From: Saccharicrinis aurantiacus
Lineage (GTDB): Bacteria > Bacteroidota > Bacteroidia > Bacteroidales > Marinilabiliaceae
DNA: 55,359 bases
Direction: 5' to 3'
Assembly (NCBI RefSeq): GCF_001660705.2
Contig: NZ_LYBV02000003.1
Location: 1 to 55,359, forward strand
Shown piece by piece: positions 17,522-49,867 of this stretch (position 1 is the first letter of the stretch; each line of letters begins with the position of its first letter). A program made the translations under genes and the position numbers. The notes beneath the pieces are model-generated. The model was not told the origin of the DNA, made no database searches, and saw only the letters and a program-made list of their open reading frames with translations.

Positions 17522-17555
17522 TTGAAGTATAGTTTTAAATCGATTTTATTTTTAG

Positions 17556-18557: not shown

Positions 18558-18588
18558 TTAAATTGATTTTATAAGCTATATATCAATA

Positions 18589-20154: not shown

Positions 20155-20232
20155 TTTTTAAGTGTGTATATTCGATTTAAAATTTAACCTTATCTAAAAA
20201 TATAACGGTCTATAGAAATAGTTTAGACCCTT

Positions 20233-22332: not shown

Positions 22333-22348
22333 AATTATATAATTAAAA

Positions 22349-23578: not shown

Positions 23579-23715
23579 AGGTGTATTTTTACCGAATTAA
23601 AATATTTTACTTAACTATTTGAATTAACTTTTTTATTGCATCAATTGCACGCTTTAGCATTTGTAGTTGGTGCGAGTGATATGTTTCAAAACTGTTCTTC
23701 TGTCCATAATTATTT

Positions 23716-25365: not shown

Positions 25366-25416
25366 AGATGTTATTTTTAGATTGGTGTAATTGTAGTTTT
25401 TAGAATTAACGAGGTG

Positions 25417-26847: not shown

Positions 26848-26851
26848 TTTT

Positions 26852-28273: not shown

Positions 28274-28527
28274 TCAGATAACTTATTTATGCTGTTTGTA
28301 CAAAGGTTTTAGTAATTGATTAAAAACATGGAGAATAACAGGTTTTAATGTAGGGTGCTAAAGTTGGGGCTTTTTGTTTTTTGCAGTCAAACCGCGAATT
28401 ATATCTTTTGAGATAACTATTCGTTTACTATTCAATTTGAAATTTGACCTTAATTCCACATAAATATTATACATCAACTTTATCAGGATAATGAAATTTT
28501 TAAACTAGTGTTAACTTAAGCTCCCTC

Positions 28528-29316: not shown

Positions 29317-29325
29317 ATTATCAGA

Positions 29326-30627: not shown

Positions 30628-30676
30628 TACTGTAGATATGTTTTAAATAGATCTGACTATTTTTATTCTGTGATAA

Positions 30677-32215: not shown

Positions 32216-32238
32216 ATAATTTCATTTACTGTAATAAT

Positions 32239-32332
32239 TCAACGGTTTTATATTGATAGGATAGCAAGGAGATATCAAGTCTAAAAGAGGGTGATAAATA
32301 ATCTACCTAAAGCATTGTTTATAAACCGTTGA
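32239..32332. repeat. Distant 10-bp inverted repeat in an intergenic gap
   Basis: TCAACGGTTT (32239-32248) and AAACCGTTGA (32323-32332) are perfect complements separated by 74 nt. They bracket most of the 123-nt gap between the 700-residue enzyme gene and the sulfatase gene. Possible roles are a long RNA stem or the ends of a small relic; neither can be decided from this window. Confidence 0.5.
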
Positions 32333-32338
32333 TTACTT

Positions 32339-34441: not shown

Positions 34442-34449
34442 GTGTAGTA

Positions 34450-36081
34450 TTAAATTTTAGATTTTATATTGGTGTAAATATCAATCTTTGGATTTCCCTT
34501 GCCTCGGGCTTTAGTTATCTCATCTTTCCAAGCATTTCTTAATTCATCGGCAATAGCCTGATAGGATGTATTATTAATAAGATTATCACATTCGCTAGGA
34601 TCATTTTTTAGGTTGTACAATTCTTCGTAGACAGGTGATTCACCTTGGATCGGACCTTCAATAAAGCTGCGATAAACGGCAAACTGACTTGGGTGAACCT
34701 CATACAACATCTCTCTTAAATGTATACCATATTGCTTGGCGAGTTTGATTTTAGCTTGAGCTGAAATATTATTGTTTTTATAGTATCGAATATATTTCCA
34801 TTCTTTGGTTTGTACCGATTCGCATCTTGGATTACCAAAAGTGGTTGACCATAAATTCTCTGTAAATAGATACTTGCGAACTGAAGTGTTTTTGTTTTCG
34901 ATAAACCCCGAAATATCTTTGCCTTGCATGGCTTCTGATTTATCAAGACCACCTAAGGATAGTATGGTTGGAGCGATATCTATAGTTTGTACTAGGGCGT
35001 CACTTTTGTACCCTTTTTTTAGTTTTGGATGGTAGATAAACATAGGCACATGTGTGGTTTTTTCGTAGCACAAAGCTTTACCTCCAAGCCCATGTTCGCC
35101 CATAAATAAACCATGGTCGGAGGTGAAGATGATGATGGTGTTTTTATCAATTTTTAGCTCTTTTAGCTTTTTTCGGAGTTTGCCAACGAGTCTATCAACC
35201 CCTGTAATACATTGCATCTGACGAATGTATCTTTCTCGAAAATCTTCAGGTGTATTAACGTAATCATAGCCTGTTTGGCGGTCGTTGGCATGATGGATAT
35301 CTGCAGGTAGTTTAGGGTTTTTTATATCCGCTTTAGCGATGTAATTATCGGGTAGGGGAATCTCCATATCTCGGTATAAGCTTCGGTATATTTCATCATC
35401 AGTAGGCTTTTGTCGCATAGCTCCGGTAGAAGCACCATGCGGAATATTGAAATTTAAATTTAGTAAGAAGGGTTTATCTTGCGGGCGGTTATCTAAAAAG
35501 CTAATTGCTCCTTTTAATCGTCTTGCATTAGGATCTAAAAATTGATCTACGCCTTCCTCTAATATTTCTACTTGCGTATCAGCAATGGCATCTTTGTATA
35601 TTTCTCTTTTTTCTTTTGGATAAAAATATACGCCCCCATGACTGGCATACCAATAATCGAAACTTTTTTCGGCGATACCACTCTCATAACCTAATTTGCC
35701 TATTGGGGTATGGTTTTTTCCTATGTAAGCGGTATAATATCCAGCCTTTCGCATTAGTACTGGGTACGAATTTTCCCATGCTTCCTCAGAAATGCTAGTA
35801 GCTGAATTAAAGTTCACACTATGTTTTCTTTCGAATTGGCCTAGCAACATACAAACTCTACTAGGTGTACATATAGGGCTGCTAACATGAGCATTTGTAA
35901 ATAGTACACTTTGGTTTACTAACTTATCTAAGTTAGGGGTTTGAATAATGCTATTACCTGTACATCCCATCATTCCATAGGATTGATCGTCTGTTAGGAT
36001 AAAAATAATATTAGGGCGATCTTGGGCTTTACCTATTAGGGTAAATAAAATAATTGATGTTATTACTAATACTTGTTTCAT
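34450..36081 (-). CDS. S1-type sulfatase
   Basis: About 543 residues from the ATG at 36081, chosen because it gives a clean signal peptide (MKQVLVITSIILFTLIGKAQ); a 7-residue longer frame exists. The metal site FILTDDQSYGMMGC is followed by the formylglycine motif C-T-P-S-R at Cys71. Other landmarks are IGKNHTPIG in place of the usual GKWHLG, NIPHGAST, IIIFTSDHGLFMGEHGLGGK and THVPMFIYHP. The lysine-asparagine-histidine version of the GK-x-H motif and the GLFMGEHG segment suggest the subgroup that includes heparan- and iduronate-type sulfatases. It lies 8 nt upstream of the unassigned enzyme. Confidence 0.92.
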   Translation of the reverse strand: MKQVLVITSIILFTLIGKAQDRPNIIFILTDDQSYGMMGCTGNSIIQTPNLDKLVNQSVLFTNAHVSSPICTPSRVCMLLGQFERKHSVNFNSATSISEEAWENSYPVLMRKAGYYTAYIGKNHTPIGKLGYESGIAEKSFDYWYASHGGVYFYPKEKREIYKDAIADTQVEILEEGVDQFLDPNARRLKGAISFLDNRPQDKPFLLNLNFNIPHGASTGAMRQKPTDDEIYRSLYRDMEIPLPDNYIAKADIKNPKLPADIHHANDRQTGYDYVNTPEDFRERYIRQMQCITGVDRLVGKLRKKLKELKIDKNTIIIFTSDHGLFMGEHGLGGKALCYEKTTHVPMFIYHPKLKKGYKSDALVQTIDIAPTILSLGGLDKSEAMQGKDISGFIENKNTSVRKYLFTENLWSTTFGNPRCESVQTKEWKYIRYYKNNNISAQAKIKLAKQYGIHLREMLYEVHPSQFAVYRSFIEGPIQGESPVYEELYNLKNDPSECDNLINNTSYQAIADELRNAWKDEITKARGKGNPKIDIYTNIKSKI

Positions 36082-36155
36082 ATAAATGTTATTTATGTAC
36101 AATTATTATTGTATTGGTTTTGCAAATCCTCAGGTTTACTTATTGTAATATCTAG

Positions 36156-37745
36156 TTACTGAGCCTTTCCACCTGTAATTGTGGGATTGGAGAGCTGTGC
36201 CTTACGTATATTTTTTTCAGCTGTTAGGCGCTTGTTTAGCGCTTTTTTACGGCCACTTTCTTTGTTTTTTTGCGAGGCATTATCTCTAATATTTTCAGAA
36301 TCTCCCATTATGTTGCCATTATGATAGCGTTCTATTAGGTCTTTACCCTCAGGAGTATGTGCATAAATTGGGAGCTCGGCATTTGCGCTTACCAAGTAAT
36401 TTTGAAGCATTTTATCCAATTCTTTTACTTTCTCAGGCAAGTCTGAATATTTGTCGTTCTGTTCCTCAGGATCGTCATTAAGGTTGAATAACGCATAACG
36501 CCCTTTGGCATCATTATAGAATAAGGTTAATTTCCATCCATCATATATTACACTTGAGTGTGGAGATGTATTTTTTGAATAGTGCGGAAAGTGAAAATAT
36601 ATGGGACGCTTAGCAAGTTTACTTGTTTGTGTAATTTCTCCTACAAGGCTTACTCCATCAATAATGTAATCGGAATTTATGGGCGCATTGGCGACCTCTA
36701 AAAAGGTAGGATACAAATCCATTGAAATGGTTCGTGTTTGGTTTAGTGCTCCACCTTTTATTTTATCGGGCCAATGCATAATAAGTGGCACACGGTATCC
36801 TCCTTCGTAAGAAAACGTTTTGCCACCCATTAGCGGGTAGTTCGATGTTGCACCACATCCGCCATTGTCGCTTGAAAAAACAATTAAGGTGTTATTTAAC
36901 AACTTTAAGTGTTTAAGATAAGCCACAATTTTACCTACACTTTCATCCAGGGCTTCCACCATTGAAGCATACTTTGGATTATTCTGGTCGGTTTTAAGTT
37001 TTTTATCATATTTGCCTATCAATTCTTTTTTGCCTACAAACGGTCCGTGTGTTAAATAACTGTGGTAACTCAAAAAGAAAGGTTTACTTTTGTTATCCTC
37101 AATAAAAGAACAAGCTGCTTCTACATAGCAATCCTCGCGCCAATCGCCTGGTTTTGCATTGGGCAGATTAACCAAGTCTGTAGTATTCGTGATATAGTGA
37201 TCTTCAAAAAGAACATCTATTTTATTATAATACCCCGCTGCCCAATCGTATCCCCTTTGCTCAGGTCTGTAGCCATCTAAAATTCCAATGTGCCATTTAC
37301 CAATAAACCCTGTAGTATATCCCGCATTTTTAAGTTGTTCTGCAATTAGTATTGCTTCACTGCCAAGGGTATGTCTGTGTTTAGCTTCTAATGTTTGGTT
37401 GTTTAAACCAATTTCTTTGCTTACGTCATAAAGGCTATCATTGGGAGCACTTTTTGATTTATATATATTGGTATATTTATTTCTGGCAGGTGACCTTCCG
37501 CTGAGTAAAGCTCCTCTTGAAGGTGCACATACCGGAGCTGCAGCATACGCTCGGGTAAAGCGCATTCCGTTTTTTGCCAACAGATCCAGGTTAGGGGTTT
37601 CGTAATATTCGCTGCCGGTGCAACTGAGATCTTTCCAACCTAAGTCATCCGCATAAATCATTATTATATTTGGTTGCGTTTGAGACTGAAGCATTGTTGT
37701 AAATAGGAATAGACTAATAGTTATAAGGTATTTGTATCTGTTCAT
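36156..37745 (-). CDS. S1-type sulfatase
   Basis: About 529 residues from the ATG at 37745, which begins a normal signal peptide (MNRYKYLITISLFLFTTML); an 18-residue longer frame to 37799 is less likely. It has MIYADDLGWKDLSC, formylglycine motif C-A-P-S-R at Cys73, GFIGKWHIG, LTHGPFVGK, IVFSSDNGGCG and YEGGYRVPLIMHW. The last 60 residues are highly charged and basic (KNKESGRKKALNKRLTAEKN), an uncommon tail of unknown purpose. The gene is the first after a 324-nt gap, so a promoter may lie there. Confidence 0.92.
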   Translation of the reverse strand: MNRYKYLITISLFLFTTMLQSQTQPNIIMIYADDLGWKDLSCTGSEYYETPNLDLLAKNGMRFTRAYAAAPVCAPSRGALLSGRSPARNKYTNIYKSKSAPNDSLYDVSKEIGLNNQTLEAKHRHTLGSEAILIAEQLKNAGYTTGFIGKWHIGILDGYRPEQRGYDWAAGYYNKIDVLFEDHYITNTTDLVNLPNAKPGDWREDCYVEAACSFIEDNKSKPFFLSYHSYLTHGPFVGKKELIGKYDKKLKTDQNNPKYASMVEALDESVGKIVAYLKHLKLLNNTLIVFSSDNGGCGATSNYPLMGGKTFSYEGGYRVPLIMHWPDKIKGGALNQTRTISMDLYPTFLEVANAPINSDYIIDGVSLVGEITQTSKLAKRPIYFHFPHYSKNTSPHSSVIYDGWKLTLFYNDAKGRYALFNLNDDPEEQNDKYSDLPEKVKELDKMLQNYLVSANAELPIYAHTPEGKDLIERYHNGNIMGDSENIRDNASQKNKESGRKKALNKRLTAEKNIRKAQLSNPTITGGKAQ

Positions 37746-38069
37746 TTTTTCATTTTTTGAAATGACACTTTCTAAACTAGAATTAATTGCATACTTCATA
37801 GAAATTCGTTTTTCGGTTTCATCGATAGAGATTAAATAAATTACCCGTGCAAATTCGGGTACGATCCAACTTAGAATACATCCGCAGGCTTGGAGATATT
37901 CAAGTCATATTATATTTATAGTTTCTGAGAATAATTCTTTAGATTACTCTGGAATTTATATTAATATCAATAATAAAGATTGCTGTATGTCACTTCATGT
38001 TTTTTGAGTATACAAAGCTCATAAAAACAGTATTGCGTTAAAAAAAGATCATTAATGTACCTCATTTAA
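37746..38069. other. Gene-free gap inside the sulfatase cluster
   Basis: No credible gene. It contains an inverted repeat TACCCG (37842-37847) with CGGGTA (37856-37861), 8-base loop, which could be a weak terminator for the upstream sulfatase or an operator. No exact TAnnTTTG element is found on the minus strand. The gap divides the cluster into likely separate transcription units. Confidence 0.5.
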
Positions 38070-39665
38070 TTATTTGTGTACCACTTTTACTCGTTTTGCC
38101 CACTCGTACCAACGGTCAATCATTTCTATATGTTTTTCGGGATATTTGGACGCTAAATTATTTAACTCTGTGGGATCTTCTTTTAGGTTAAAGAGCTCCC
38201 ACTCTTGTCCATCCTTTTGGCGTGACCAGGCTATTTTCCAATCGCCTTTTCGGTAAGCTTTGTTTCTGCCATGTTCCATGAACCATTCGTCACGTAATAA
38301 TTTTTTTCCATTTAACACGGACATTATACTGATACCTTCAGTAGCTTGTATCTTATTCCCCTTATATGAATTAGGGTAATTGGTTTCAGTGACATCTAAT
38401 ATGGTTGGCATAACATCAATAATGCTAGCCACTTCATTAGCTAGGGCATTTTTGTCTTTAATTTGCATTGGCCAATGCATAATGAAAGGGCTAATAACGC
38501 CACCTTCGTGACCCGATTTTTTGAATCTACGATAGGGAGTATTGCTAAGGTTTGCCCATGCTGGTCCGTAACTCATATAACTGGTTGCAGGGCCTGGCAA
38601 TACATTTATATCATTACCTGGATATACTCTCTTGCCATCTATAGTTACAGAAACTTCACGGCTCGACACCCACTGTTCAACGCCTTCTAAGGTTTCTGCA
38701 CATCCTCCATTATCAGAAAGAAACATGATCAATGTATTGTCAAACTCGCCTTCTTTTTTAAGTTTTGAGATGATGCGACCAATGCCTTGATCCATATTAT
38801 CAACCATGGCTGCATAGGTCATCATGCGCTGTAATTCCCACTTTTTATTTTCTGTAGCGCTCCATGCTTTCGCACGAGGATTTCGAGGACTTAGTTTTAC
38901 GTTTTCGGGAACAATACCTAGGTTTTTCATGCGCTCAAGTCTTTCTTCCCTTAAAACATCCCATCCCTTATTAAACACGCCTTCATATTTTTCGATGTCT
39001 TTTGGCAAAGCATGCAATGGCCAGTGTGGAGCAGTATAGGCTACATAAAAGAAGAAAGGTGATTGCTTGTTATTCTGAAAATGGTTATCAATAAATGAAA
39101 CCGTAGAATCTGAAATAGCATCGGTATAATAGAAGCTGTCTTCTGGCTTTAGCTTAACGGCTTCGTTGTTGTAGTTTAATGAATATGGATCGAAATAACT
39201 TCCTACACCTTTTATGGTACCAAAAAATTTATCAAAACCGCGTTGGATAGGCCAATTGTGTTTGTCTTCGCCGTTATCAGAATCAGCTACATGCCATTTC
39301 CCAGTCATGTAAGTAGCATAACCGTTGGTTTTCATAATCTCGGCAATGGTAACAGCATTTATGCTAAGGTCGCCATGACCATGACCAACCATTCCGCCAA
39401 CACCTGCCTGATGTGGGTATAATCCAGTTAAAAGTGCTGCTCGTGTTGGGCAGCATCTTGCATTGTTATAAAATTGAGTAAAACGAATACCACCCTCTGC
39501 GAGCTCATCCAAGTTGGGTGTATTTATTTCGCCACCATAACATCCAATATCGGAATAGCCCATATCATCGGCCATTATCAGAATGATATTAGGGCGTTTT
39601 TGAGCTACAATTTGAATCCCCAATGTTAGAAAGAATAGCAGAATTGTGGTATGTTTTTTATTCAT
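38070..39665 (-). CDS. S1-type arylsulfatase with C-C-P-T-R motif
   Basis: A 531-residue exported sulfatase (signal peptide 1-22). It has IILIMADDMGYSDIGCYGGE, formylglycine motif C-C-P-T-R with Cys71, HQAGVGGMVGHG, MTGKWHVADS, YTAPHWPLHALP, MFLSDNGGCAE and KSGHEGGVISPFIMHW. The C-P-T-R core and the AGVG block place it near the AtsA-like arylsulfatases, a distinct subgroup from the other sulfatases here. It lies 25 nt downstream... of no gap on the upstream side: the next sulfatase gene ends 25 nt before its start. Substrate unknown. Confidence 0.93.
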   Translation of the reverse strand: MNKKHTTILLFFLTLGIQIVAQKRPNIILIMADDMGYSDIGCYGGEINTPNLDELAEGGIRFTQFYNNARCCPTRAALLTGLYPHQAGVGGMVGHGHGDLSINAVTIAEIMKTNGYATYMTGKWHVADSDNGEDKHNWPIQRGFDKFFGTIKGVGSYFDPYSLNYNNEAVKLKPEDSFYYTDAISDSTVSFIDNHFQNNKQSPFFFYVAYTAPHWPLHALPKDIEKYEGVFNKGWDVLREERLERMKNLGIVPENVKLSPRNPRAKAWSATENKKWELQRMMTYAAMVDNMDQGIGRIISKLKKEGEFDNTLIMFLSDNGGCAETLEGVEQWVSSREVSVTIDGKRVYPGNDINVLPGPATSYMSYGPAWANLSNTPYRRFKKSGHEGGVISPFIMHWPMQIKDKNALANEVASIIDVMPTILDVTETNYPNSYKGNKIQATEGISIMSVLNGKKLLRDEWFMEHGRNKAYRKGDWKIAWSRQKDGQEWELFNLKEDPTELNNLASKYPEKHIEMIDRWYEWAKRVKVVHK

Positions 39666-39690
39666 TTTGAATTGCTAATTAGTTGTAATC

Positions 39691-41112
39691 TTATTTAGAA
39701 ATATCTTTATCTATATCAGCATCAAATTGATTCATTTGCTTAATGAGTTCTTCTGCTTTCTCTGGATGCTGACTGATTACATTCTTCGATTCTGAGATGT
39801 CGTTTTTTAGATTGAAAAGCTTAGGTTTTAAATCTTCTTCTGATAGTTTTCTCCATGATGTTTTTCTGTACCCATTGATTACGTATTTCCAATCACCCAT
39901 TCGTATTCCGTCAACTTTTGTAGAGTTTGAACCGTAAAAATACATCTCCTGGCGAGGTGATTTTTTCGATTTGCCTTCAATAAACTTAGAAATGTTATAA
40001 CCATCGTATGTTCTATCTTTTGGCAATGGTATTTTGGCATAATGTGCAAATGTTGGGAGTAAGTCGAGTGAGGAAACAATCTCATCACTAACAATACCTG
40101 ACTTTATTTTGCTTGGTGCCCATACAACGGCAGGTACCCTCTGTCCGCCTTCGTAAGTATCAAACTTACGGCCCTTTAAAGGTTTTGCTGAACCATGACT
40201 ATTGGGGCCATTATCAGAAGTAAATACCACTATTGTATTTTCATCTAAACCTAATTTTTTAAGCGTATTAAGCACTTCGCCAACACTCCAATCAATTTCT
40301 TGCACGGCATCATAGAAGGGAGAGGTGCCGCTTGAATCCTTAAACTTTTCGCCTGCATATATGGGTACATGTGGAAAAGAATGTGCAAAATATAAGAAGA
40401 AGGGTTGATCTTTATTCTCGGTAATAAATGAGATGGCTTCGTTTGTGTAGCGTTCAGTTAAGGTACCTTGATTACAAGGGTATTCAATAATTTCGTTACC
40501 TCTCATAAGTGGAGGTTTATTTTTTAAGTGTGCTTTTTGTTCTGCGCTTTGTTTTATATCAACAAGGGCTCTATCTGCCTCCATCGCTTCGAGGTTATAG
40601 TTTTCGGTAAAAACAATATCTGGAGAGATATCAATATTTGCTGCCACTGACATATTGTTACTATATGGAATGCCAAAATATGAATCGAACCCTTGATTGA
40701 GGGGGAGATACTTTTTTTTGTGACCCAAATGCCATTTGCCGACTAATGCAGTGGCATAATCTTTTTCTTTTAATAGTTCAGCTATGGTTATTTCATCTGG
40801 CGAAAGCCCTTTTTCATTTTTACGAGGGAATAAGACACCCGGAACACCAACTCGTTTAGGCATTCTGCCAGTAAGCAATGCTGCTCGTGATGGAGAACAA
40901 ACAGATGAGGCTACGTAAAAGCTAGTTAGTTTAAGCCCCTCTTTAGCCATATTATCAATGTTAGGAGTTTTAACCTTATTAGAGCCAAAACAACCGAGGT
41001 CTTCGTAGCCCTGGTCATCGGTAAAAATAATGATGAAGTTTTGGGTTTGCGCAGAAAGCGACTGAAGTAAAAAGGCGAGTAGTATTATAGAAAAGCTTTT
41101 ATATAGATTCAT
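39691..41112 (-). CDS. S1-type sulfatase
   Basis: A 473-residue exported sulfatase (signal peptide 1-21). Landmarks are FIIIFTDDQGYEDLGCFGSN, formylglycine motif C-S-P-S-R at Cys72, ALVGKWHLGHK, FAHSFPHVPIYAGE, VVFTSDNGPNSHGSAKPL and TYEGGQRVPAVVWAP. It is the shortest of the eight sulfatases and has no accessory domain. A perfect hairpin in the 45-nt gap upstream separates it from the fucosidase gene and could adjust its expression level relative to that gene. Confidence 0.93.
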   Translation of the reverse strand: MNLYKSFSIILLAFLLQSLSAQTQNFIIIFTDDQGYEDLGCFGSNKVKTPNIDNMAKEGLKLTSFYVASSVCSPSRAALLTGRMPKRVGVPGVLFPRKNEKGLSPDEITIAELLKEKDYATALVGKWHLGHKKKYLPLNQGFDSYFGIPYSNNMSVAANIDISPDIVFTENYNLEAMEADRALVDIKQSAEQKAHLKNKPPLMRGNEIIEYPCNQGTLTERYTNEAISFITENKDQPFFLYFAHSFPHVPIYAGEKFKDSSGTSPFYDAVQEIDWSVGEVLNTLKKLGLDENTIVVFTSDNGPNSHGSAKPLKGRKFDTYEGGQRVPAVVWAPSKIKSGIVSDEIVSSLDLLPTFAHYAKIPLPKDRTYDGYNISKFIEGKSKKSPRQEMYFYGSNSTKVDGIRMGDWKYVINGYRKTSWRKLSEEDLKPKLFNLKNDISESKNVISQHPEKAEELIKQMNQFDADIDKDISK

Positions 41113-41126
41113 GAGATGTTATTTTA

Positions 41127-41149
41127 TGGAGTAGCGCGAAGCTACTCCA
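41127..41149 (-). repeat. Perfect 9-bp intergenic hairpin between GH29 and a sulfatase
   Basis: TGGAGTAGC (41127-41135) and GCTACTCCA (41141-41149) enclose a 5-base loop. On the minus strand it lies 8 nt after the GH29 stop and is followed by TAAAATAA, not a T run. It may be a partial terminator or RNA-stabilising stem within the operon. Confidence 0.7.
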
Positions 41150-41157
41150 CAGATGAA

Positions 41158-42675
41158 TTATTTTAATGTGATTTTGTAAACAATAGCAGCATCTCCTTCG
41201 GCAGGTTTCTTGCTTGGAGAAGTAACTTTTATACCCTTATTTGTTGTAGACCATTTGATACGTTCTTTGCTGCCTAACACTTTTATCGATTTCACTTTCA
41301 TGTTCTTTGCTTTACCAGCGAAGGTTTCAAGTGTTAGTTCTTGTTTAGATCCGGGCCATCCTAACTGAATTGCATAAACTGTTTTGCCATTTTGGGTATA
41401 ACGAACATCTTGTGCATTCAACTTGTCTAAGCCAGCTTTAATTGAACCGTATGCATTCCAATTGTCGTTGGGGTTAGAAACTAACTTAGTAGGGCCTTGA
41501 CCAAACTCTACAAACGGACGAGTATTATAGATTGCCTCGCCATATAATTGCAGCCAATTGCCAATACCCTCCATACTAGCTACTTGCTCTTCGGGAATAA
41601 TACCCTCCGCCATTGGCGCAGCAGCTAAAATCATTACTCCATTCTTGCTAACCACTTCGGCCAGAATTCTAATTGCTTTTTGAGGATTTAGAGCTGTTCT
41701 TTTATCTTTATTGTATCCCCACGAACTACCTAATTGAAAATCAGTAATCCAAACAAATGGGGTGATATCTTCCATAGTAGCACGTTCAACATTAACGGCT
41801 GCAATATCAGTAGGGAAGAAGTCTCCCTTGGTATTTACCACCACTTCTTTATTGAGTTCTTGCGCTTTATTAAAGTAGTTTGCTAAAAATTGTTTGCGGT
41901 AGTCTTCTCTCACGTACCCTTGCGCAAAATCCATCCAAATATAATCCGGACAATATTCGTCAATTACCTCGTTAAGTTTGCCTAGCCATATATCACATTC
42001 CTTTTCATAGGGCATATTTCCATAAAGGATATCATAGTCGCCTCCTTCAGGAAACTCTAATTGGTTATAAGCAACAAGGTGTTGCGTTGCTGGGCGCAAT
42101 ACTGAGTTTTCTTTTTTAGGGAAAAACATCATATGAAAACCATGATGAAAAGTGGTCATAAACTTTAAATCTCGTTTTTTCACTTCCAAAGCCATCTCTT
42201 TCACCACATCAATTTTAGGTCCCATCTTTTTTGAGTTCCATGGATTTACTTCACTTTCCCAAAGCGAAAAGCCATCATGATGTTCAGCAATGGTTCCAAT
42301 AAATTTAGCACCCATATACTCAAATTTATCAACCCACTCTTTTGCATTAAACTGTTCGCCTTTCCATTCAGGGATAAAATCGTGGTATTGTTTATCTCTT
42401 CCATAAGTTTTGGTATGGTAATCGTAAATACCTTTGCCCCAATTCTTTTTTCTGTCGTGTTCATACATAAAACGGCCATACCATTCGTTCCCATTTGCAG
42501 GTACATTATATACTCCCCAATGGAAATATACACCTAGTTTAGCATCAGAAAACCACTCAGGCGTGACCTTGTGATTTTTAAGGTTATCCCATTCTGGTTT
42601 GTATTGCTCTTGAGCACTAATTGCTGAAGTAGCAACTAGAGCTGTGATTAGTAGTAAAAGTATTTTTTGTTTCAT
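41158..42675 (-). CDS. GH29 alpha-L-fucosidase
   Basis: A 505-residue exported enzyme (signal peptide 1-21). The GH29 pattern is clear: PEWFSDAKLGVYFHWGVYNV, NEWYGRFMY, GAKFIGTIAEHHDGFSLW, and YIWMDFAQG, whose Asp249 is the expected nucleophile. The catalytic acid/base is less conserved in the family and cannot be assigned here. The C-terminal part (about 420-505) is a small beta domain (VYAIQLGWPGSKQELTLETF). It removes alpha-L-fucose by retaining hydrolysis and is a main reason to think the cluster's substrate contains fucose. It is 12 nt downstream of a sulfatase gene. Confidence 0.95.
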   Translation of the reverse strand: MKQKILLLLITALVATSAISAQEQYKPEWDNLKNHKVTPEWFSDAKLGVYFHWGVYNVPANGNEWYGRFMYEHDRKKNWGKGIYDYHTKTYGRDKQYHDFIPEWKGEQFNAKEWVDKFEYMGAKFIGTIAEHHDGFSLWESEVNPWNSKKMGPKIDVVKEMALEVKKRDLKFMTTFHHGFHMMFFPKKENSVLRPATQHLVAYNQLEFPEGGDYDILYGNMPYEKECDIWLGKLNEVIDEYCPDYIWMDFAQGYVREDYRKQFLANYFNKAQELNKEVVVNTKGDFFPTDIAAVNVERATMEDITPFVWITDFQLGSSWGYNKDKRTALNPQKAIRILAEVVSKNGVMILAAAPMAEGIIPEEQVASMEGIGNWLQLYGEAIYNTRPFVEFGQGPTKLVSNPNDNWNAYGSIKAGLDKLNAQDVRYTQNGKTVYAIQLGWPGSKQELTLETFAGKAKNMKVKSIKVLGSKERIKWSTTNKGIKVTSPSKKPAEGDAAIVYKITLK

Positions 42676-42687
42676 CTTATATATTTA

Positions 42688-44226
42688 TTAATTGTCTCTT
42701 TCTCCTTTGGCTTTTAAGTGCTTTTCTTCAAATCCTTTAAAGTAATAAGGATAATCGTCCCAGGGCGATTTTCCTTGCATGCGCGGATCATTGGTTTCTT
42801 TTAGATAAGCAAATAGTTCTTTTTTAAGTGCTTTGCATAGCTTTTTGTGTTTTGAGTTGTTAGCAAGGTTGTGTAGTTGATATGGATCATTTTTTACATT
42901 GTACAATTCAATTTTTGGATGTTTACCAAACGATAAATCGAAGTAATATTTTAACTCTTCATTATTTTTATTTTCGATGAGGTGCTCACGTGTTGCACCT
43001 GCATCAATATCGCCATAAAATCCCTGATGGGGAGATGTAAAATCGGCATCACCAGCTGGCCATCTATCTGCTTCAAAGTTTACAATGTAAAGCCAATCTC
43101 CTTTTCTGATTGTACGTATAGGGTAGGGCATACCATCGGGTCTGCAATATGTATGGCGTTCTAATGAAGTGAAAACTCTATCCCGTGAGGGGTCAATTTG
43201 GCCACTTTGTTCAGCTAGTAAAATATCAAGGAAACTTTTACCAGTAGTCTCTTTTGGAGCATCTAAGCCAACTGCCTCTAGTAAGGTTGGAGCAAAGTCA
43301 ATGAAGCTAATAAAGTCGTCTACGGTATTGCCTCCTTTTATTTTATTACCCCAACAAATTGCTAAAGGCATATGTGTTCCGTAATCGTAGCAGCTTGCTT
43401 TAGCTCGAGGAAATGGCATGCCATTATCGGCAGTTACAATAATAATAGTATTCTCAAGTTCATTGGCATCTTCAAGGTCTTTAATCATACGGCCCAAATG
43501 TGAATCGAACCATTCAACCTCATAATAATAGTCGGCAATATCACTTCTTACTAAATCATTATCTGGTAAAAAGCCAGGCACTTTAATTTTAGAAATATCC
43601 TTGCCCGATCGTGCTCCAATACCAGGGTTGTATGCTCTATGTGCCTCGTGTGATCCATACCAAAAGAAAAACGGTTTGCTTTTATCTCGTTGTTTAAGAA
43701 AAGATGAAAAATTTCCTGCATAGTCTTTATTAGAAATAAATTGAGGGGCTTTCTTTCGCACCTTGTTGTATTCGGGAGCAAGAGGTTCTGTTTGATAGGG
43801 CTCCTTTTTATTGGCAGGCATATATCCCTTACCTGTATAACCTGCCGAATATCCATTCGCTTTTAGTAATGTAGTAAAGGTTGTGTGTTTTTTAGGAAGT
43901 CCGCCAAATAGCAAGCCGCCTTCTTCTAGTTCCCAAATGTTTTTGCCCGTTAAAATAGACGCTCTTGAAGGAGCACATGAAGATACTGTGCAATAGGCAT
44001 TATTAAATAATACGCCCTTTTGTGCTACCCTATCAAAGTTTGGGGTACTAATTTCAGCAGTACCATTAATAGAAGTGTGTGGAAAACTAATATCATCGGC
44101 AATACAGAATAAGATATTTGGTCTTTTATTTTGCTGTGCTTCTAAGTTATATGCTGACGCAAATAGCAGAGTCAGCAGTAAAAGGATGACATTGTTAGCT
44201 AATGCTATTTGTAATTGTTGTTTCAT
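42688..44226 (-). CDS. S1-type sulfatase, N-sulfoglucosamine sulfohydrolase-like
   Basis: About 512 residues from the ATG at 44226, 7 nt after the upstream stop. A longer frame to 44349 overlaps the upstream sulfatase by 116 nt and is rejected because the signal peptide starts at the internal Met (MKQQLQIALANNVILLLLTL). It has LFCIADDISFPHTSINGT, formylglycine motif C-A-P-S-R at Cys84, YTGKGYMPANK in the usual GKWH position, GSHEAHRAY, IIIVTADNGMPFPRAKASCYDYGTH segments, and a C-terminal WDDYPYYFKGFEE. The DDISFPH and ASCYDYGTH-type features resemble heparan N-sulfatase-like enzymes. Confidence 0.92.
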   Translation of the reverse strand: MKQQLQIALANNVILLLLTLLFASAYNLEAQQNKRPNILFCIADDISFPHTSINGTAEISTPNFDRVAQKGVLFNNAYCTVSSCAPSRASILTGKNIWELEEGGLLFGGLPKKHTTFTTLLKANGYSAGYTGKGYMPANKKEPYQTEPLAPEYNKVRKKAPQFISNKDYAGNFSSFLKQRDKSKPFFFWYGSHEAHRAYNPGIGARSGKDISKIKVPGFLPDNDLVRSDIADYYYEVEWFDSHLGRMIKDLEDANELENTIIIVTADNGMPFPRAKASCYDYGTHMPLAICWGNKIKGGNTVDDFISFIDFAPTLLEAVGLDAPKETTGKSFLDILLAEQSGQIDPSRDRVFTSLERHTYCRPDGMPYPIRTIRKGDWLYIVNFEADRWPAGDADFTSPHQGFYGDIDAGATREHLIENKNNEELKYYFDLSFGKHPKIELYNVKNDPYQLHNLANNSKHKKLCKALKKELFAYLKETNDPRMQGKSPWDDYPYYFKGFEEKHLKAKGERDN

Positions 44227-44233
44227 AATTGTT

Positions 44234-45685
44234 TTATTTAGGATCAACAACATGCAGTCCTGCTGCTGCTTTAGTTGGCAAGTCAATTGGTCTGATAAAA
44301 GGATTACGACAAGGAGGCATTTCATTGCGATGCGAGATGTATGCTCCAAATATTTTTTGCATTACCTCAGGGTTCTCTCTGCTTACGTTAGTAGTTTCAG
44401 ATAGGTCATTTTCCAAATCGAAGAGGAAATGTTTGTTATCTTCTATATATAATTTCCATTTACCCATTCGCACCGCGCCCATTCTATTGGCATACCAAAA
44501 CAGATAGTCATGCGGATCTTGATTGGCACCACCCTTAATGTATGGCATTAGGTTAACACCGTCTAAATGTGTGTAATTAGGTAAGCGAACATTTGCAGCA
44601 GCGCATAACGTAGGATATAAATCTAAAGTACTCACTGTTTTTTTATAGGTGCTATTTTGTTTGAGTTGCGCAGGCCAACTAACAATGTAAGGTATGCGAA
44701 TGCCTGCTTCTCTGAATATTCCTTTATAGCCAGATAATCCGCCTCGTTGTCCCATAATGTGATACGGAGAATCATCGGGCCACCAACTTGGAACTTCAAA
44801 ATGAATGGGATTCATAGGGCCATTGTCACTTAAAAATACAATAATTGTATTGTCTCTTAAATCTTCTTTTTCAAGATAATCTAATATGCGTCCCACATTA
44901 TCATCAATTGCCAAAACCATAGCGGCGTATAGTTTCATGGATTCTGATTGGATATTTTCTACTCGTTTTCTATCTACCTTTTTAGCTTGTAAAGGCGTGT
45001 GAGGGGCATTAAATGCTAAATAGAAGAAGAATGGATTCTCCTTGTTTTCTTCAATAAACTCAATACACTGTCGACCGCATCTATCTGTTATATACTCTTC
45101 GCCCTCGCGATCAGGACCCCATTGAACCATAGTCCAACCTTCTTTGGGTTTCGGATATTGATCCACCCCACCATATCCACCTTTGGCATCAGGAAAATAA
45201 TTACATCCTGCAGAGGTAAGTGAGTAAGTTTTATCAAAAGTTGTATTTGGATATCCAGGCAAGTTATATTTCCCTGCTATGGCGGTTACGTATCCTGCTT
45301 CTGAAAAAGCTTGATTGATATAGCGGTGCTTTTCAGGCACAATAGCCTTCCTTTTTTTTTGGCCAGGTAGATTAAAAGTGTCATGGTTCCACTGAATGCC
45401 AAATCGCGTTTGATAGCAACCAGTTAATAAACCAAGCCGACTAGGAGAGCAAACCGATGAAGATACATATCCATCCGTAAACCGAATTCCTTCATTAGCT
45501 AATCTATCAATGTTAGGTGTTTCGAATAATTTTCCTCCATAACAACTAGGATCGGCATATCCTAAATCATCAGCATTAATAATAATGATATTCGGTCTAG
45601 AATCATTGACGGCATTCTTCTTTTTCGCCTCAATGAGTTGAACTGAAATAATGATTAGGATTAATAATAGATACGTTTTTTTCAT
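44234..45685 (-). CDS. S1-type sulfatase
   Basis: A 483-residue exported sulfatase (signal peptide 1-20). It contains IIIINADDLGYADPSCYGGK, formylglycine motif C-S-P-S-R at Cys79, YQTRFGIQWNHD, AIAGKYNLPGYP in the position of the usual GKWH motif (Trp-His replaced by Tyr-Asn), FNAPHTPLQAKK, IVFLSDNGPMNPIHF and REAGIRIPYIVSW. The altered GK-Y-N motif may change metal or sulfate contacts and is worth noting. It lies 30 nt after the trehalase-fold gene, near the promoter end of the cluster. Confidence 0.92.
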   Translation of the reverse strand: MKKTYLLLILIIISVQLIEAKKKNAVNDSRPNIIIINADDLGYADPSCYGGKLFETPNIDRLANEGIRFTDGYVSSSVCSPSRLGLLTGCYQTRFGIQWNHDTFNLPGQKKRKAIVPEKHRYINQAFSEAGYVTAIAGKYNLPGYPNTTFDKTYSLTSAGCNYFPDAKGGYGGVDQYPKPKEGWTMVQWGPDREGEEYITDRCGRQCIEFIEENKENPFFFYLAFNAPHTPLQAKKVDRKRVENIQSESMKLYAAMVLAIDDNVGRILDYLEKEDLRDNTIIVFLSDNGPMNPIHFEVPSWWPDDSPYHIMGQRGGLSGYKGIFREAGIRIPYIVSWPAQLKQNSTYKKTVSTLDLYPTLCAAANVRLPNYTHLDGVNLMPYIKGGANQDPHDYLFWYANRMGAVRMGKWKLYIEDNKHFLFDLENDLSETTNVSRENPEVMQKIFGAYISHRNEMPPCRNPFIRPIDLPTKAAAGLHVVDPK

Positions 45686-45715
45686 GATTATTTTATTTAA
45701 TACTTAAGTCGGTTT

Positions 45716-47026
45716 TTATTTGAAATTAACACCTATTTGTATGCCGAGCTGTTTTATGTTTTTCTCGTTTAAATCTGTAGGGTTATAGTTTAGCTGTAAC
45801 TCTAATGGTAAAATATAAGCTAAGGACGACCAACCAAAGAATGGGTTCATTCCATTGCCTTCACCAGTTTCTGCATTAAAAAATTCACGAGTGGTTTTAT
45901 TGCCAAGTACCATATTATATGTTTTTAAGGCAATATCTTTAGCTAAATCCTTATAGCCATAATCCATTAAGCCATGGCATATCATGTAATTGGTAGGTAT
46001 CCATGTGTTGCCTTTCCAGTTGCATCCTTTTTGACCTTGGTAATTTTGTCGGTAATCAGGTTCGTTCATTGCATATGAAGGAATAGGGTAAGCAGACCAA
46101 AATTCTTTTGGGTTAAGAAGATGTTCATCAACCATTCGTTTTACTTGCTCTTTAGAGGCAACGCCAGACCAAATTGGTGTAAATCCAGAAACAGATTTTA
46201 CAAAGGTTGTTTTTCCATTTTCTTCATTTCTATCGTAATAAAATCCGGTTTTCTCATCCCAAAGATGTTCGTTAATTAATGCTTTTAACTGTTTTGCATG
46301 CTCTTTGTATTTCGCAATGTCTTTCTTTTTACCTATTTCTTTAGCTATAACGGCCATAGCTTCTAACTCACGAACTAAATAACAATTTAAATCAACGCCT
46401 TCGCTTTTTCCGAGGCATCGTGTATTTTGGTTGTCCATTCCACTGTGATCTGAGGCGCCTGACCAATTTTTCATTTGTTTGCCCGACCAATATGCTAAGC
46501 CATTTTTATCGGTATCATATTCAAACCAGTGTTCTAAATACTTTTTAGTTTGCTCGTAGTAATTAGCAGCCCAAGTCCAATCTTTAGTTTGTCGAGATCC
46601 TAATACTATTATCTGTGCGATAAAAGGTTTGAAGTGGTGCGTTAACCCAAACGGTTTTGGCCCGAAACATCTTTTAATAAAACCATCTGGATGTTGAATG
46701 GCAAAAAAGCCTTCAAGGTTATCGAAATTATATTGAGAAATGCCATAATAGGACATGTAGATGTTTTCGAAATATAAATCCCAATCGTAAAATTGTTCGT
46801 ATTTGTATCCCGTAAGGAGTTTTTTGTTGGTTATTGTAGTATCTAATAAAATGCCATATCGTGTAATATCTTCGTTTAATTCTCTAAGTCTGGTTTTTAA
46901 AACAATTGAGTTGGCATCATATTCTACATGTGCAGGGGCTGCGTATTTCGGGCTTTGAGCGTAAACATCTGCATATTGTAATAAGAATAAACAGATTAGT
47001 AATATGTTGTATTTTGATAGATTCAT
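45716..47026 (-). CDS. Trehalase/GH63-fold glycoside hydrolase
   Basis: A 436-residue exported protein (signal peptide 1-23). It has the (alpha/alpha)6 pattern of the MGH1/GH63/GH37 group: YEQFYDWDLYFENIYMSYYG, FGLTHHFKPFIAQIIVLGSR, SGASDHSGMDNQNTRC, NCYLVRELEAMAVIAKEIGK, LWDEKTGFYYDRNEENGK, the loop CNWKGNTWIPTNYMICHGLM and EGNGMNPFFGWSSLAYILP. These carry the usual catalytic Asp and Glu candidates. It is the first gene of the long minus-strand cluster, next to the shared regulatory region. Substrate is unknown; trehalose is unlikely in this context. Confidence 0.8.
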   Translation of the reverse strand: MNLSKYNILLICLFLLQYADVYAQSPKYAAPAHVEYDANSIVLKTRLRELNEDITRYGILLDTTITNKKLLTGYKYEQFYDWDLYFENIYMSYYGISQYNFDNLEGFFAIQHPDGFIKRCFGPKPFGLTHHFKPFIAQIIVLGSRQTKDWTWAANYYEQTKKYLEHWFEYDTDKNGLAYWSGKQMKNWSGASDHSGMDNQNTRCLGKSEGVDLNCYLVRELEAMAVIAKEIGKKKDIAKYKEHAKQLKALINEHLWDEKTGFYYDRNEENGKTTFVKSVSGFTPIWSGVASKEQVKRMVDEHLLNPKEFWSAYPIPSYAMNEPDYRQNYQGQKGCNWKGNTWIPTNYMICHGLMDYGYKDLAKDIALKTYNMVLGNKTTREFFNAETGEGNGMNPFFGWSSLAYILPLELQLNYNPTDLNEKNIKQLGIQIGVNFK

Positions 47027-47329
47027 GATATCGATTTTTGTAAATGTGAATGTTTACAATAAAAGTATTTTGGTATCTCTAAAAAGTACCTTAATGAGTT
47101 TTTAGAATTGTATTAAATATGCCTTAAAATACCCCTTAATAAGTTTTGTAAGTTTCTTTTATTTAGTGCTATGCAATTTTGTTAAAAAATATTTACTCGG
47201 GTGTAAATTTAAAGGTGAATAAACAGGGGTAAATACGAATAAAGACAATTGTTAGGCCTTATCGTATCTGAATTATTGATCTTTTTTATATGTTTGAGAA
47301 ATGGAGTTAATAGCATTACCAATTATTTA
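47027..47329. promoter_or_regulatory. Divergent regulatory region with repeated GTAAAT/ATTTAC motifs
   Basis: This gene-free stretch separates the catabolic cluster from its presumed regulator. It has GTAAAT on the plus strand at 47040, 47203 and 47229, ATTTAC at 47191, and the near match GTTTAC at 47052. Two pairs form inverted repeats: TTGTAAA with TTTACAA (47038-47059) and ATTTAC with GTAAAT (47191-47208). A separate pair of imperfect direct repeats, TACC-TTAATGAGTTTT (47087-47102) and TACCCCTTAATAAGTTTT (47130-47147), lies between. No exact TAnnTTTG element was found for the minus-strand cluster, which may indicate activator dependence. Confidence 0.55.
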
Positions 47330-49867
47330 ATGTATTATAATATAACCTGTGATTTGAGAACTATCTATTATCAAAAAACCATCGTATTTTTATTGATCCT
47401 CTTTATTGTAGGATGTACTCAGACACTATTTGCATCTGATTTTAGCAAGCAATCATTCGCCATTGCAGAACTTAGTACAAAGGAGGAAATTACATCTTCT
47501 CTTAAATTGCCCAAGGGGGTAGGGTGTTTTGGTATGTCAATTAAACTGATTGCTAATAAGAATGGTGAATCACCATTCTTAAAATTAACTGAAGGTGAAT
47601 TACGCTTTCGCGATTTCCTTACGGATTTAAAAGCTTACATAGAGTCTACCAAATTTGTTTTTCCATTGTTTATAGATTATGAGGGAGATGAGGGTGATTT
47701 AATCAGAGAATTTGAAACAGCTGGTTTATTAACCAGTTTGTATCATCATCCTTCTGGAGAAAAGTGGCCAGATATTGATGATGTTATAAATGTAGGAAAG
47801 CAATTAGTTGTTTTTAACCAATCAACAAATAAACAATTAAGTAAGTATGTAAATGCTTACACTAATAATGTAGTAGATTTTGCCTATAAAAAGCAAAATA
47901 ACGTTAGTGATAATCGGGTTCAGTTTATTGGAGATACTAGTAACGAATTGTTATCCTTAAGGCGATTTTCGAAAGAGGGCATAAAAGAAGAAGAGCTCCC
48001 AGCAGATTGGGTTCGTATTAGTTTAAATTCGTATTGCATAGATTATTTACTAGAGAGTTGGCAAATTTCAGGGAAGCAACCAAATTTTATATTCTATTCA
48101 GATAAGAAATATAATATTACATTTCATTACCTGTGTAAAACACTTAATGATTTAAATAGTGTTTCTGGTTCTGTTAAAAGTAATGGCAATTTATTAAAAG
48201 GTATCAGTTGGGCGCATCATAAATTGGCGTTGAGTAATGGTCATTTTAGGTTTCAATACGATAATGAATCGTTCTTTATACTTGAACCACACAAGCAAGG
48301 ATATCGCTTCGAACCTAGTTCTGTTGTTATTGATAATAATCAACAGTTTGCTTCGCCTTTTAATTTCGAAGCTTCCGCTTTAAATTTAAGTGATGGTTTA
48401 AGGGCGAATTATAAATTTAATAATTCAATCATTAATTTAGTTAATGGTAAGTCACGCCCTCAGAATTGTAATTTTGTGGTGGATAACGAAAGAGGCGATG
48501 TGCTAAAAGTATCCGACCAAAATTACCTTACCCTAGATAAGGTTTCTGCTTATAATATTGTAAATAGTAGCTTCACCATCTCTGTTTATTTTAAATTTAT
48601 TGAAGAGAATAACTATTGCTATTGTATTTTAGGTAGCAACGAAGAAGGTTTTAGAAAGGGCTTACATGCAGTATTAAAACCTGGTAAAGTTTTATTTGGG
48701 TTTTATACTAACGACAGTAGTGCGCCTGTTAAACTCGAACCATTAAAATGGTATCACTTAACCATTCGTTACGATATTATTAAAGAGGAACAAAGTATAT
48801 TTATTGATGGAAATAAAGTAGCTTCTTCACTTCATCACCCTTCGTTTACCGGAAGTTCTGAGTTATTATTAGGGCATGGTATTAAGCAAGATAATTATTT
48901 AAATGGGTATATAGATGACTTGTCTATATGGGATAGAGCTTTAAGTGATGATGAAATTAAATGGTTAAACCTACATGCTGTTGAAGTACCAGAAAAGCCA
49001 TGGTATACTGGGTTTGCTTTGCTTGCAATAGGTTTACTTTTTGTAATGTTGGTATTTATTGTATGGATATTTAAAAAGAAACAATCTAAGTCTCAATTAA
49101 AACCTGAAGTTATTAAGGTAAGTGACGAAAATAAAAATGCCATTTATTTATTCGGAAAGTTTACGGTTTTAAACCAAAGTGGAGTGGATTATTCATCTCA
49201 CTTCTCGCCAAAAATAAAAGAGCTCTTTTTATTATTACTAATCTCAAGTATAAAAAATGAAAGAGGGATATTAACTAGTGAACTTACCAAGTTATTGTGG
49301 CCTGGTTTTGAGGTGAATAAAGCTGCCAATAATAGAGGTGTTACATTTAATGCCCTAAAAAAGATACTTGCAGAAATAGATGGTTTAGATACTGTTTATG
49401 AAGATAAGTTTTGGCGATTGAATATAGCAAGTGAAATATACTGTGATTACCGAAGTCTGATTAAGGAAATTAATGAAAACTCAAAAGAATACCAGTACAA
49501 GTGTTCAATTATTAGGCGAGGTGAATTTGTAAGTGATATAGAAAAAGATTGGTTATTGGATATTAAAAGTAATTTGAACTTCGATAATGTTGATTTACTG
49601 TTGAGATATTCTAAGGTACTTTATGCCCAGAAAAATTATCCACTTTTATTAGAAGTAAGTGAGTATGTTTTAAAATTAGATGACCTAAATATTCAGGGCA
49701 TCTATTACCAATTAAAGTGTCTTACTGAATTGGATAATGTAAATAAAGCGCTTTTTGTTTTCGATAAGTACACGCATAAATATCAAACCATCCATCAAAG
49801 TGAATTTAAGCACTCGTTTAAAGCATTTATGAAACTTAAAGTAGATGTTCTTTGGCAACTAAATTAA
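47330..49867 (+). CDS. Predicted membrane-spanning regulator: PI-PLC-like, LamG, TM, winged helix
   Basis: About 845 residues from the ATG at 47330; a TTG-initiated frame from 47249 is possible but unneeded. A hydrophobic N-terminal segment (IVFLLILFIVGCTQTLFA) is a signal peptide or anchor. Residues about 37-260 resemble a PI-PLC-like barrel (LRFRDFLTDLKAYIES, FETAGLLTSLYHH, WPDIDDVINVGKQLVVFNQ, KQPNFIFYS) but no catalytic histidine motifs are visible. Residues about 350-550 are a LamG jelly roll (SFTISVYFKF, WYHLTIRYDI, GYIDDLSIWDRALSDDEI). One transmembrane helix (about 558-582) leads to a SARP/OmpR-type winged helix (603-705, LTKLLWPGFEVNKAANNRGV) and a TPR-like tail. Probably it senses glycan outside and binds DNA inside. 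The role is inferred. Confidence 0.75.
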   Translation: MYYNITCDLRTIYYQKTIVFLLILFIVGCTQTLFASDFSKQSFAIAELSTKEEITSSLKLPKGVGCFGMSIKLIANKNGESPFLKLTEGELRFRDFLTDLKAYIESTKFVFPLFIDYEGDEGDLIREFETAGLLTSLYHHPSGEKWPDIDDVINVGKQLVVFNQSTNKQLSKYVNAYTNNVVDFAYKKQNNVSDNRVQFIGDTSNELLSLRRFSKEGIKEEELPADWVRISLNSYCIDYLLESWQISGKQPNFIFYSDKKYNITFHYLCKTLNDLNSVSGSVKSNGNLLKGISWAHHKLALSNGHFRFQYDNESFFILEPHKQGYRFEPSSVVIDNNQQFASPFNFEASALNLSDGLRANYKFNNSIINLVNGKSRPQNCNFVVDNERGDVLKVSDQNYLTLDKVSAYNIVNSSFTISVYFKFIEENNYCYCILGSNEEGFRKGLHAVLKPGKVLFGFYTNDSSAPVKLEPLKWYHLTIRYDIIKEEQSIFIDGNKVASSLHHPSFTGSSELLLGHGIKQDNYLNGYIDDLSIWDRALSDDEIKWLNLHAVEVPEKPWYTGFALLAIGLLFVMLVFIVWIFKKKQSKSQLKPEVIKVSDENKNAIYLFGKFTVLNQSGVDYSSHFSPKIKELFLLLLISSIKNERGILTSELTKLLWPGFEVNKAANNRGVTFNALKKILAEIDGLDTVYEDKFWRLNIASEIYCDYRSLIKEINENSKEYQYKCSIIRRGEFVSDIEKDWLLDIKSNLNFDNVDLLLRYSKVLYAQKNYPLLLEVSEYVLKLDDLNIQGIYYQLKCLTELDNVNKALFVFDKYTHKYQTIHQSEFKHSFKAFMKLKVDVLWQLN

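What the first reader, a model, noticed from the sequence alone, without database searches (positions are those of the whole stretch)
47330..49867. Membrane-spanning one-component regulator combining a dead PI-PLC-like domain, LamG and a SARP-type DNA-binding domain
The predicted order is signal or anchor, degenerate PI-PLC-like barrel, LamG lectin-like domain, one transmembrane helix, winged helix of SARP/OmpR type, TPR-like tail. Polysaccharide loci in Bacteroidota are normally controlled by hybrid two-component systems, SusR, ECF sigma/anti-sigma pairs or soluble regulators. A ToxR/CadC-like layout with two carbohydrate- or lipid-related folds outside would be a different way to sense glycans. 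Position supports it: the gene is divergent from a 31-kb sulfatase/glycosidase cluster. The domain calls come from motif recognition by eye and the regulatory role is inferred.
Basis: partly seen in the sequence, partly recalled or inferred. Interest (0 to 1): 0.8.

Follow-up and report, generated by a model that had tools for sequence, protein, structure and literature searches.

The report
Membrane-spanning sugar-sensing gene switch
This gene most likely makes a protein that sits across the bacterial membrane, senses sugar material outside with lectin-like parts and switches on neighbouring sugar-breakdown genes with a DNA-binding part inside, and it belongs to a family of such switches for which we found no description in the papers we could search.

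Summary
The SARP assignment rests on a profile comparison (99.2%, E 1.2e-19); SusR does not match (0.3%). The strongest new result is a predicted operator: TTAA/TTAG repeats phased at 11 bp, the SARP spacing, before the flanking operon, in 20 of 35 such regions and 0 of 94 control regions. The window holds one array, between the regulator and the divergent sulfatase/glycosidase cluster. The link to sulfatases is not general: 42 of 51 family members sit beside GFO/IDH/MocA oxidoreductases or a NapC-FGE fusion (3-keto-glycoside type), 3 beside sulfatases. The window's cluster also carries a 3-keto pair. The same output module occurs with Kelch sensors, in two checked loci beside SusC/SusD genes. 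Membrane one-component glycan regulators are known in Bacteroidota (SusR), so this is a new variant of a known kind; the paper searches listed nothing on it. Ligand, DNA binding and regulation are inferred, not shown.

The parts
47330..49867 (+). CDS of the membrane-spanning SARP-type regulator, 845 aa
   Evidence: AF2 model mean pLDDT 82.3, pTM 0.53
47378..47434 (+). N-terminal hydrophobic segment, residues 17-35 (signal peptide or anchor)
   Evidence: hydropathy; such a segment passes the threshold in 22 of 32 sequences
47438..48154 (+). PI-PLC-like TIM barrel, residues about 37-275, no conserved His
   Evidence: strands in the AF2 model, conserved block in A3; family not assigned
48518..48961 (+). 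LamG / concanavalin-like domain, residues 397-544
   Evidence: Pfam 1.4e-18; Foldseek jelly-roll hits
49016..49072 (+). transmembrane helix, residues 563-581, C-terminus inside
   Evidence: hydropathy and charge
49136..49429 (+). SARP/OmpR-type winged helix, residues 603-700
49436..49864 (+). BTAD / TPR-like helical domain, residues 703-845
47091..47139 (+). predicted operator: TTAA, TTAG, TTAA, TTAA, TTAA at 47091, 47102, 47113, 47124, 47136
   Evidence: only chain of 4 or more in the 55-kb window, both strands (0.2 expected from 60 Markov resamplings); 1 of 20000 resamplings of the intergenic region reaches 5
45716..47026 (-). divergent first gene of the cluster, MGH1-like glycosidase; its start lies 64 nt from the array
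15713..47026 (-). minus-strand sulfatase/glycosidase cluster of 20 ORFs, the presumed target
29326..30627 (-). GFO/IDH/MocA oxidoreductase inside the cluster
   Evidence: Pfam 3.8e-16 and 1.9e-19
28528..29316 (-). 3-keto-disaccharide hydrolase-family protein inside the cluster
   Evidence: Pfam 3.6e-39; PDB 4qhz 2.9e-70

Best explanation
It is a membrane-spanning one-component activator. The exported half (dead PI-PLC-like barrel, beta-sandwich, LamG) binds a glycan or glycoside outside the cytoplasmic membrane. Binding is passed through the single transmembrane helix, probably by dimer formation or rearrangement, to a cytoplasmic SARP-type winged helix with a BTAD domain. Several DNA-binding units then sit side by side on an array of TTAA/TTAG direct repeats, one per helical turn, upstream of the flanking operon, and recruit RNA polymerase. 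In the window the array lies between the regulator and the divergent sulfatase/fucosidase cluster, which also contains a 3-keto-glycoside oxidation pair; in most relatives the target is a GFO/IDH/MocA or NapC-FGE operon. Shown by computation: architecture, topology signal, SARP homology, phased arrays, neighbourhood. Inferred: ligand, signal transfer, binding to the array, activation rather than repression.
For: Architecture and topology. SARP homology over wHTH plus BTAD. TTA[AG] pairs at lag 11 in 35 target regions: 68 against a shuffle mean of 6.7; chains of 3 or more in 20 of 35 (shuffle mean 0.68, maximum 5 in 300 sets) and in 0 of 94 control intergenic regions. The 11-bp period matches SARP operators (heptamers with 4-bp spacers; PMC3367932, passages). 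In the 14 same-direction loci with a chain of 3 or more the array lies 23-218 nt before the target start (12 of 14 at 49-115), while its distance from the regulator's stop varies from 65 to 842 nt. Regions not read beforehand, either strand: 6 of 26 around full-length regulators (5 of 21 leaving out three loci counted; control lags 1, 1, 0 of 26) and 8 of 31 around module proteins with other sensors (control lags 1, 0, 0 of 31). 42 of 51 family members beside 3-keto-glycoside-type genes or the NapC-FGE fusion.
Against: The motif was first seen by eye in the same regions, so the main count is post hoc, and related loci are not independent. 15 of 35 target regions have no chain of 3; only 1 of 6 in the Sunxiuqinia/Gaoshiqia group has one. 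The 49%-identical orthologue L036 reaches only 2 under the strict rule, 8 under a looser one. 20 of 26 regions in the second full-length set have no chain of 3. No promoter pair was found next to the window array by a simple scan: none on the minus strand, only distant ones on the plus strand. An array in a divergent region could serve the regulator's own gene. An ECF sigma gene (51894-52451) and a histidine kinase (10505-14191) nearby could control the cluster instead. No ligand is known.
Confidence: 0.75

Rival explanations
1. The protein is released by proteolysis on sensing, and the freed cytoplasmic SARP unit acts as a soluble factor rather than from the membrane.
For: A low-confidence linker (586-599) follows the TM and varies in length and sequence, so it could be open to a protease; known SARPs are soluble (recalled).
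Against: No conserved cleavage motif is visible by eye in the linker in A3; not tested further.
Confidence: 0.15
2. The regulator controls only its own gene or the downstream DUF5060 gene; the sulfatase cluster is run by the ECF sigma factor at 51894-52451 or by the histidine kinase at 10505-14191.
For: Both regulators are present; the window array lies in a divergent region and no promoter pair decides the direction.
Against: In loci where regulator and target run in the same direction the array tracks the target start, not the regulator. In the window it is 64 nt from the glycosidase start, 109 nt from the regulator's TTG and 190 nt from its ATG (and coordinates).
Confidence: 0.2
3. It is a diverged member of the SusR family.
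For: Same overall layout; BT2160 of the B. thetaiotaomicron BT2156-BT2160 operon is classed as SusR4 (PMC3878776, passages).
Against: Four SusR-type proteins are 530-545 aa with DUF6377 and a conserved C-terminal stretch; hhalign with our module gives 0.3%; DUF6377 is not among the 21 families reported for the 32 sequences of A3.
Confidence: 0.02
4. The PI-PLC-like barrel is an active lipase or phosphodiesterase and the protein is an enzyme with a regulatory tail.
For: PI-PLC is the nearest fold.
Against: No invariant His in the domain; the three His-rich columns are N, N, Y in this protein.
Confidence: 0.03

Closest known systems
SusR family (DUF6377, PF19904), with SusR4/BT2160
   Same: Bacteroidota, one TM helix, sensor outside and DNA-binding part inside, linked to glycan operons; predicted operators are direct repeats (PMC3878776, passages)
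   Different: TPR-type sensor and another C-terminal part, no profile similarity; SusR repeats are predicted 67 or 77 bp apart, not 11
SARP regulators (PimR, AfsR type; wHTH plus BTAD)
   Same: wHTH plus BTAD order and 11-bp phased direct-repeat operators (PMC3367932, passages)
   Different: their DNA-binding domain is N-terminal (PMC3367932, passages); soluble, without an ectodomain (recalled); here the unit is C-terminal behind a TM helix
ToxR/CadC-type membrane one-component regulators (recalled)
   Same: OmpR-type winged helix, one TM helix and an exported sensor
   Different: wHTH is N-terminal there, C-terminal here; no BTAD or LamG/PLC-like domains there
Hybrid two-component systems of polysaccharide loci
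   Same: large exported glycan sensor controlling glycan genes (PMC3878776, passages)
   Different: no kinase, receiver or AraC domain found here

Membership tests
SARP-type regulator | winged helix followed by BTAD helical domain | tested here: met
   hhalign 99.2%, E 1.2e-19, 231 columns against 6 BTAD proteins; Pfam alone finds BTAD in 3 of 32 sequences at E<=0.1
SARP-type regulator | direct-repeat operator with 11-bp period upstream of target | tested here: met
   20 of 35 target regions, 0 of 94 controls; binding itself not tested
SARP-type regulator | N-terminal DNA-binding domain; soluble (the latter recalled) | tested here: not met
   module is C-terminal, behind a TM helix; so it works like a SARP output but is not a canonical SARP
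SusR family (DUF6377) | DUF6377 domain | tested here: not met
SusR family (DUF6377) | membrane-spanning one-component layout | tested here: met
   by hydropathy and charge; SusR layout from PMC3878776 passages
PI-PLC | PI-PLC-like TIM-barrel fold | tested here: met
   top two Foldseek hits, moderate TM 0.42-0.45, E 1.3e-3 and 2.8e-3
PI-PLC | catalytic histidines (recalled) | tested here: not met
   no His column above 23 of 32; N, N, Y in this protein; active site not mapped by superposition
LamG (Laminin_G_3) | profile match over the curated cut-off | tested here: met
   67.9 bits against 27.6
ToxR/CadC-type regulator | N-terminal OmpR-type wHTH, TM helix, exported sensor (recalled) | tested here: not met
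   the order is reversed here

The most novel reading that the evidence does not exclude
A family of transmembrane SARP regulators in Bacteroidota, not described in the papers searched, with interchangeable exported sensors (PLC-like/LamG for glycoside-oxidising and sulfatase operons, Kelch propellers for SusC/SusD loci) on one output module, which reads helically phased TTAA/TTAG arrays and is a main controller of 3-keto-glycoside glycan breakdown.
Probability: 0.55. Interest if true: 0.8.

Novelty: new variant of a known kind. Interest (0 to 1): 0.7.

Why it matters
It would add a further class of glycan-sensing regulator to SusR, hybrid two-component and ECF sigma systems, with an operator that can be recognised in raw sequence, so that targets can be predicted. 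It also gives a candidate controller for oxidative (3-keto) glycoside breakdown; in B. thetaiotaomicron BT2158 is a periplasmic glycoside 3-dehydrogenase needed for growth on trehalose, leucrose and palatinose (PMC11300592, passages), and its operon is linked to glucosinolate conversion (PMC11879859, passages).

Tried and rejected
SusR membership: rejected by profile comparison with four proteins taken as SusR. One of them (L214) is flanked by an alpha-amylase/cyclomaltodextrinase-type gene, GH97, a SusC-type receptor and SusD; the other three are assigned by their place near GH97 genes and by DUF6377. BT2160 itself was not available, so its relation to this family was not tested directly.

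Sequence search with the N-terminal profile found nothing in PDB up to E 10; the single sequence gave a weak PI-PLC match (5fyo, E 0.065) and the fold search gave PI-PLC first. A profile search of the C-terminal module against PDB gave no SARP, mainly weak TPR matches.

A general repeat-lag scan with 10-nt windows showed only a weak excess at lag 12 in one group (5 of 14 regions, 0.5 expected); 7- and 8-mer counts gave mostly A/T words, with TTAACC- and AAGGTTAA-type words in two groups. The TTAR lag test was built after reading the regions printed.

Own-genome scan with a four-unit array pattern (its gaps give lags of 10-11, not exactly the rule): 6 forward and 4 reverse matches against 3 and 1 for the reversed control, one site being counted on both strands; near chance except the window site and possibly C1:146203, which lies just upstream of a histidine kinase gene. 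The scan does not define a regulon.

Paper searches on the regulator and on the pathway listed no description of this family; several listings were capped (25 of 984, 15 of 37) and only the open-licence library is covered. Papers seen as passages only: PMC3878776, PMC11300592, PMC11501099, PMC11879859, PMC3367932; all others in listings only.

Full report
The gene. Window 47330-49867 (+) is an 845-residue ORF. Pfam gives only Laminin_G_3 above its cut-off. Three further places in the same genome match: two paralogues over most of the length (C27, C16) and one (C25) over residues 375-835. Of 61 related genomes (own included) 25 have a match at 1e-5, some through LamG alone; 12 proteins, this one included, were aligned as full-length. 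With that profile 25 of 71 genomes of the family match at 1e-30. A scan of genome contigs, capped at the best 80 of 166 relatives, gave 35 named relatives over nearly the full length (L070-L104), whose record titles name Prolixibacteraceae, Marinilabiliaceae, Sunxiuqinia, Parabacteroides, Tannerellaceae, Bacteroidaceae and a few others. In a phylum sample 11 of 395 genomes match at 1e-40, only two candidates per genome being scored; apart from the window's own genome these matches start at profile position 544 or later, that is, they cover the C-terminal module only.

Architecture. The AF2 model from 31 sequences has mean pLDDT 82.3 but pTM 0.53, so the relative placement of domains is uncertain. 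The N-terminal domain modelled alone (pLDDT 82.0, pTM 0.78) has two PI-PLCs as its nearest PDB folds, then generic TIM barrels; E-values are modest and TM scores about 0.45. Conserved positions are W146-P147, W244, G248, P251-N252-F253; no histidine is. A beta-sandwich (about 277-361) and LamG follow. Alignment A3 holds this protein and 31 of the 35 named relatives (L091, L092, L094 and L102 were left out). All 32 have a strong hydrophobic segment after LamG with net positive charge on its C-terminal side, in 30 of 32 more positive than on the other side (L070 equal, L090 reversed); an N-terminal hydrophobic segment passes the threshold in 22 of 32.

The output module. BTAD or Trans_reg_C appear in only a few members by Pfam, and a BTAD search finds nothing in the window's genome at 1e-6. 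Six of the seven BTAD matches over the cut-off in an 80-genome sample of the phylum (L240 dropped because my script found no ORF on its strand) were aligned (A8) and compared with 25 of the 32 modules (A6): 99.2%, E 1.2e-19, colinear over wHTH and BTAD. Four SusR-type proteins (A7, DUF6377) give 0.3%.

Neighbourhood. Of 51 distinct regulators with an N-terminal match (56 before removing duplicates; L046, L047, L048, L105 and L106 match the N-terminal part weakly), 41 have a GFO/IDH/MocA gene within four genes, 24 a NapC/NirT-FGE fusion, 42 either, and 3 a sulfatase (window, L036, L080). Gene families were named by Pfam on one representative each and extended by profiles built from the same clusters, so their E-values are not independent. 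The nine without either are L034, L036, L047, L071, L090, L092, L093, L209 and the window; L092 and L093 have a xylose-isomerase-like TIM protein directly downstream. Some loci are cut by contig ends, and related genomes are not independent. Other recurrent genes are xylose-isomerase-like TIM proteins, 3-keto-disaccharide hydrolase, ThuA, GT2 and PMT-TPR. That this set resembles the B. thetaiotaomicron BT2156-BT2160 pathway is recalled; passages state that BT2158 is a periplasmic glycoside 3-dehydrogenase, that BT2160 is the regulator of the operon and that it is SusR-like. If so, similar operons are under different regulator families in different genera; this is inference. The window's divergent cluster contains a GFO/IDH/MocA protein and a 3-keto-disaccharide hydrolase-family protein side by side, about 17 kb from the regulator, so it fits the family rule in content though not in distance.

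The operator. Reading regions between regulator and target showed TTAA/TTAG repeats at one helical turn. In 35 target regions there are 68 pairs at lag 11 and 26 at lag 12, with peaks at 22-23, 33-34 and 44-45, while 94 other intergenic regions of the same loci are flat; dinucleotide shuffles expect 6.7 and 6.5 at lags 11 and 12. Chains of at least three: 20 of 35 target regions, 0 of 94 controls, shuffle mean 0.68; at least four: 12 of 35 and 0 of 94. By group: 5 of 11, 1 of 6, 5 of 6, 8 of 10, 1 of 2. Control regions are shorter and slightly less AT-rich, hence the shuffles and control lags. Regions not read beforehand, either strand: 6 of 26 (5 of 21 leaving out three loci counted) against 1, 1, 0 at three control lags; around module proteins with other N-termini 8 of 31 against 1, 0, 0 (first seen as 8 of 30). 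In 14 same-direction loci the array is 23-218 nt before the target start while its distance to the regulator's stop ranges from 65 to 842 nt; in the 6 divergent loci with a chain it is 16-84 nt from the target and 108-146 nt from the regulator (start codons are the first possible ones, not curated). In the window the single array of five is at 47091-47139, 64 nt from the glycosidase start. Heptamers at an 11-bp period are typical of SARPs (PMC3367932, passages).

A wider family. Of 24 module proteins without LamG or N-terminal match, nine were scanned: eight carry Kelch repeats in the exported part and one short protein, L051, shows neither. In two loci checked by Pfam the neighbours are SusC-type receptor and SusD genes (L199, L205). 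Four more combine the module with LamG but no N-terminal match. The module matches in 35 of 98 genomes of a sample centred on the P. distasonis genome, with up to four places per genome.

Verdict. The finding is real and, as a family, more interesting than stated, but its concept (membrane one-component glycan regulator) has a precedent in SusR. What looks new is a SARP output behind a TM helix with exchangeable sensors, an operator visible in sequence, and a link to 3-keto-glycoside breakdown. DNA binding, ligand and direction of control remain to be tested.

Noticed in passing
L033:7005-8534; same cluster in 29 loci (duplicates included): A single ORF of about 510 aa fuses a NapC/NirT multihaem cytochrome domain to an FGE-sulfatase (SUMF1-like) domain (Pfam on this one), next to GFO/IDH/MocA genes; possibly an electron outlet for glycoside oxidation.
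   Followed up: partly
L067:8710-10398: A 563-aa protein joins two LamG matches to an AraC-type HTH: the LamG sensor also occurs with a different output domain.
   Followed up: partly
L199, L201, L202, L204, L205, L050, L053, L061: Regulators with Kelch propeller sensors on the same TM-SARP module; L199 and L205 sit beside SusC/SusD genes.
   Followed up: partly
window 51894-52451: ECF-type sigma factor gene downstream of the regulator, a possible second regulator of the locus.
   Followed up: no
window 10505-14191 and 14207-14785: 1228-aa histidine kinase at the far end of the sulfatase cluster and a LuxR-type (GerE) gene beside it.
   Followed up: no
G000:C1:146203-146238 (L243): Another four-copy 11-bp TTAA array in the same genome, just upstream of a histidine kinase gene.
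   Followed up: partly
G000:C27:46379-48904 (L033): Own-genome paralogue is followed by NapC-FGE, two GFO/IDH/MocA, ThuA, a TIM-barrel protein and a 3-keto hydrolase.
   Followed up: partly
L108:4520-7097: The Cyclobacteriaceae copy of the regulator is split over three ORFs: broken gene or sequencing error.
   Followed up: no
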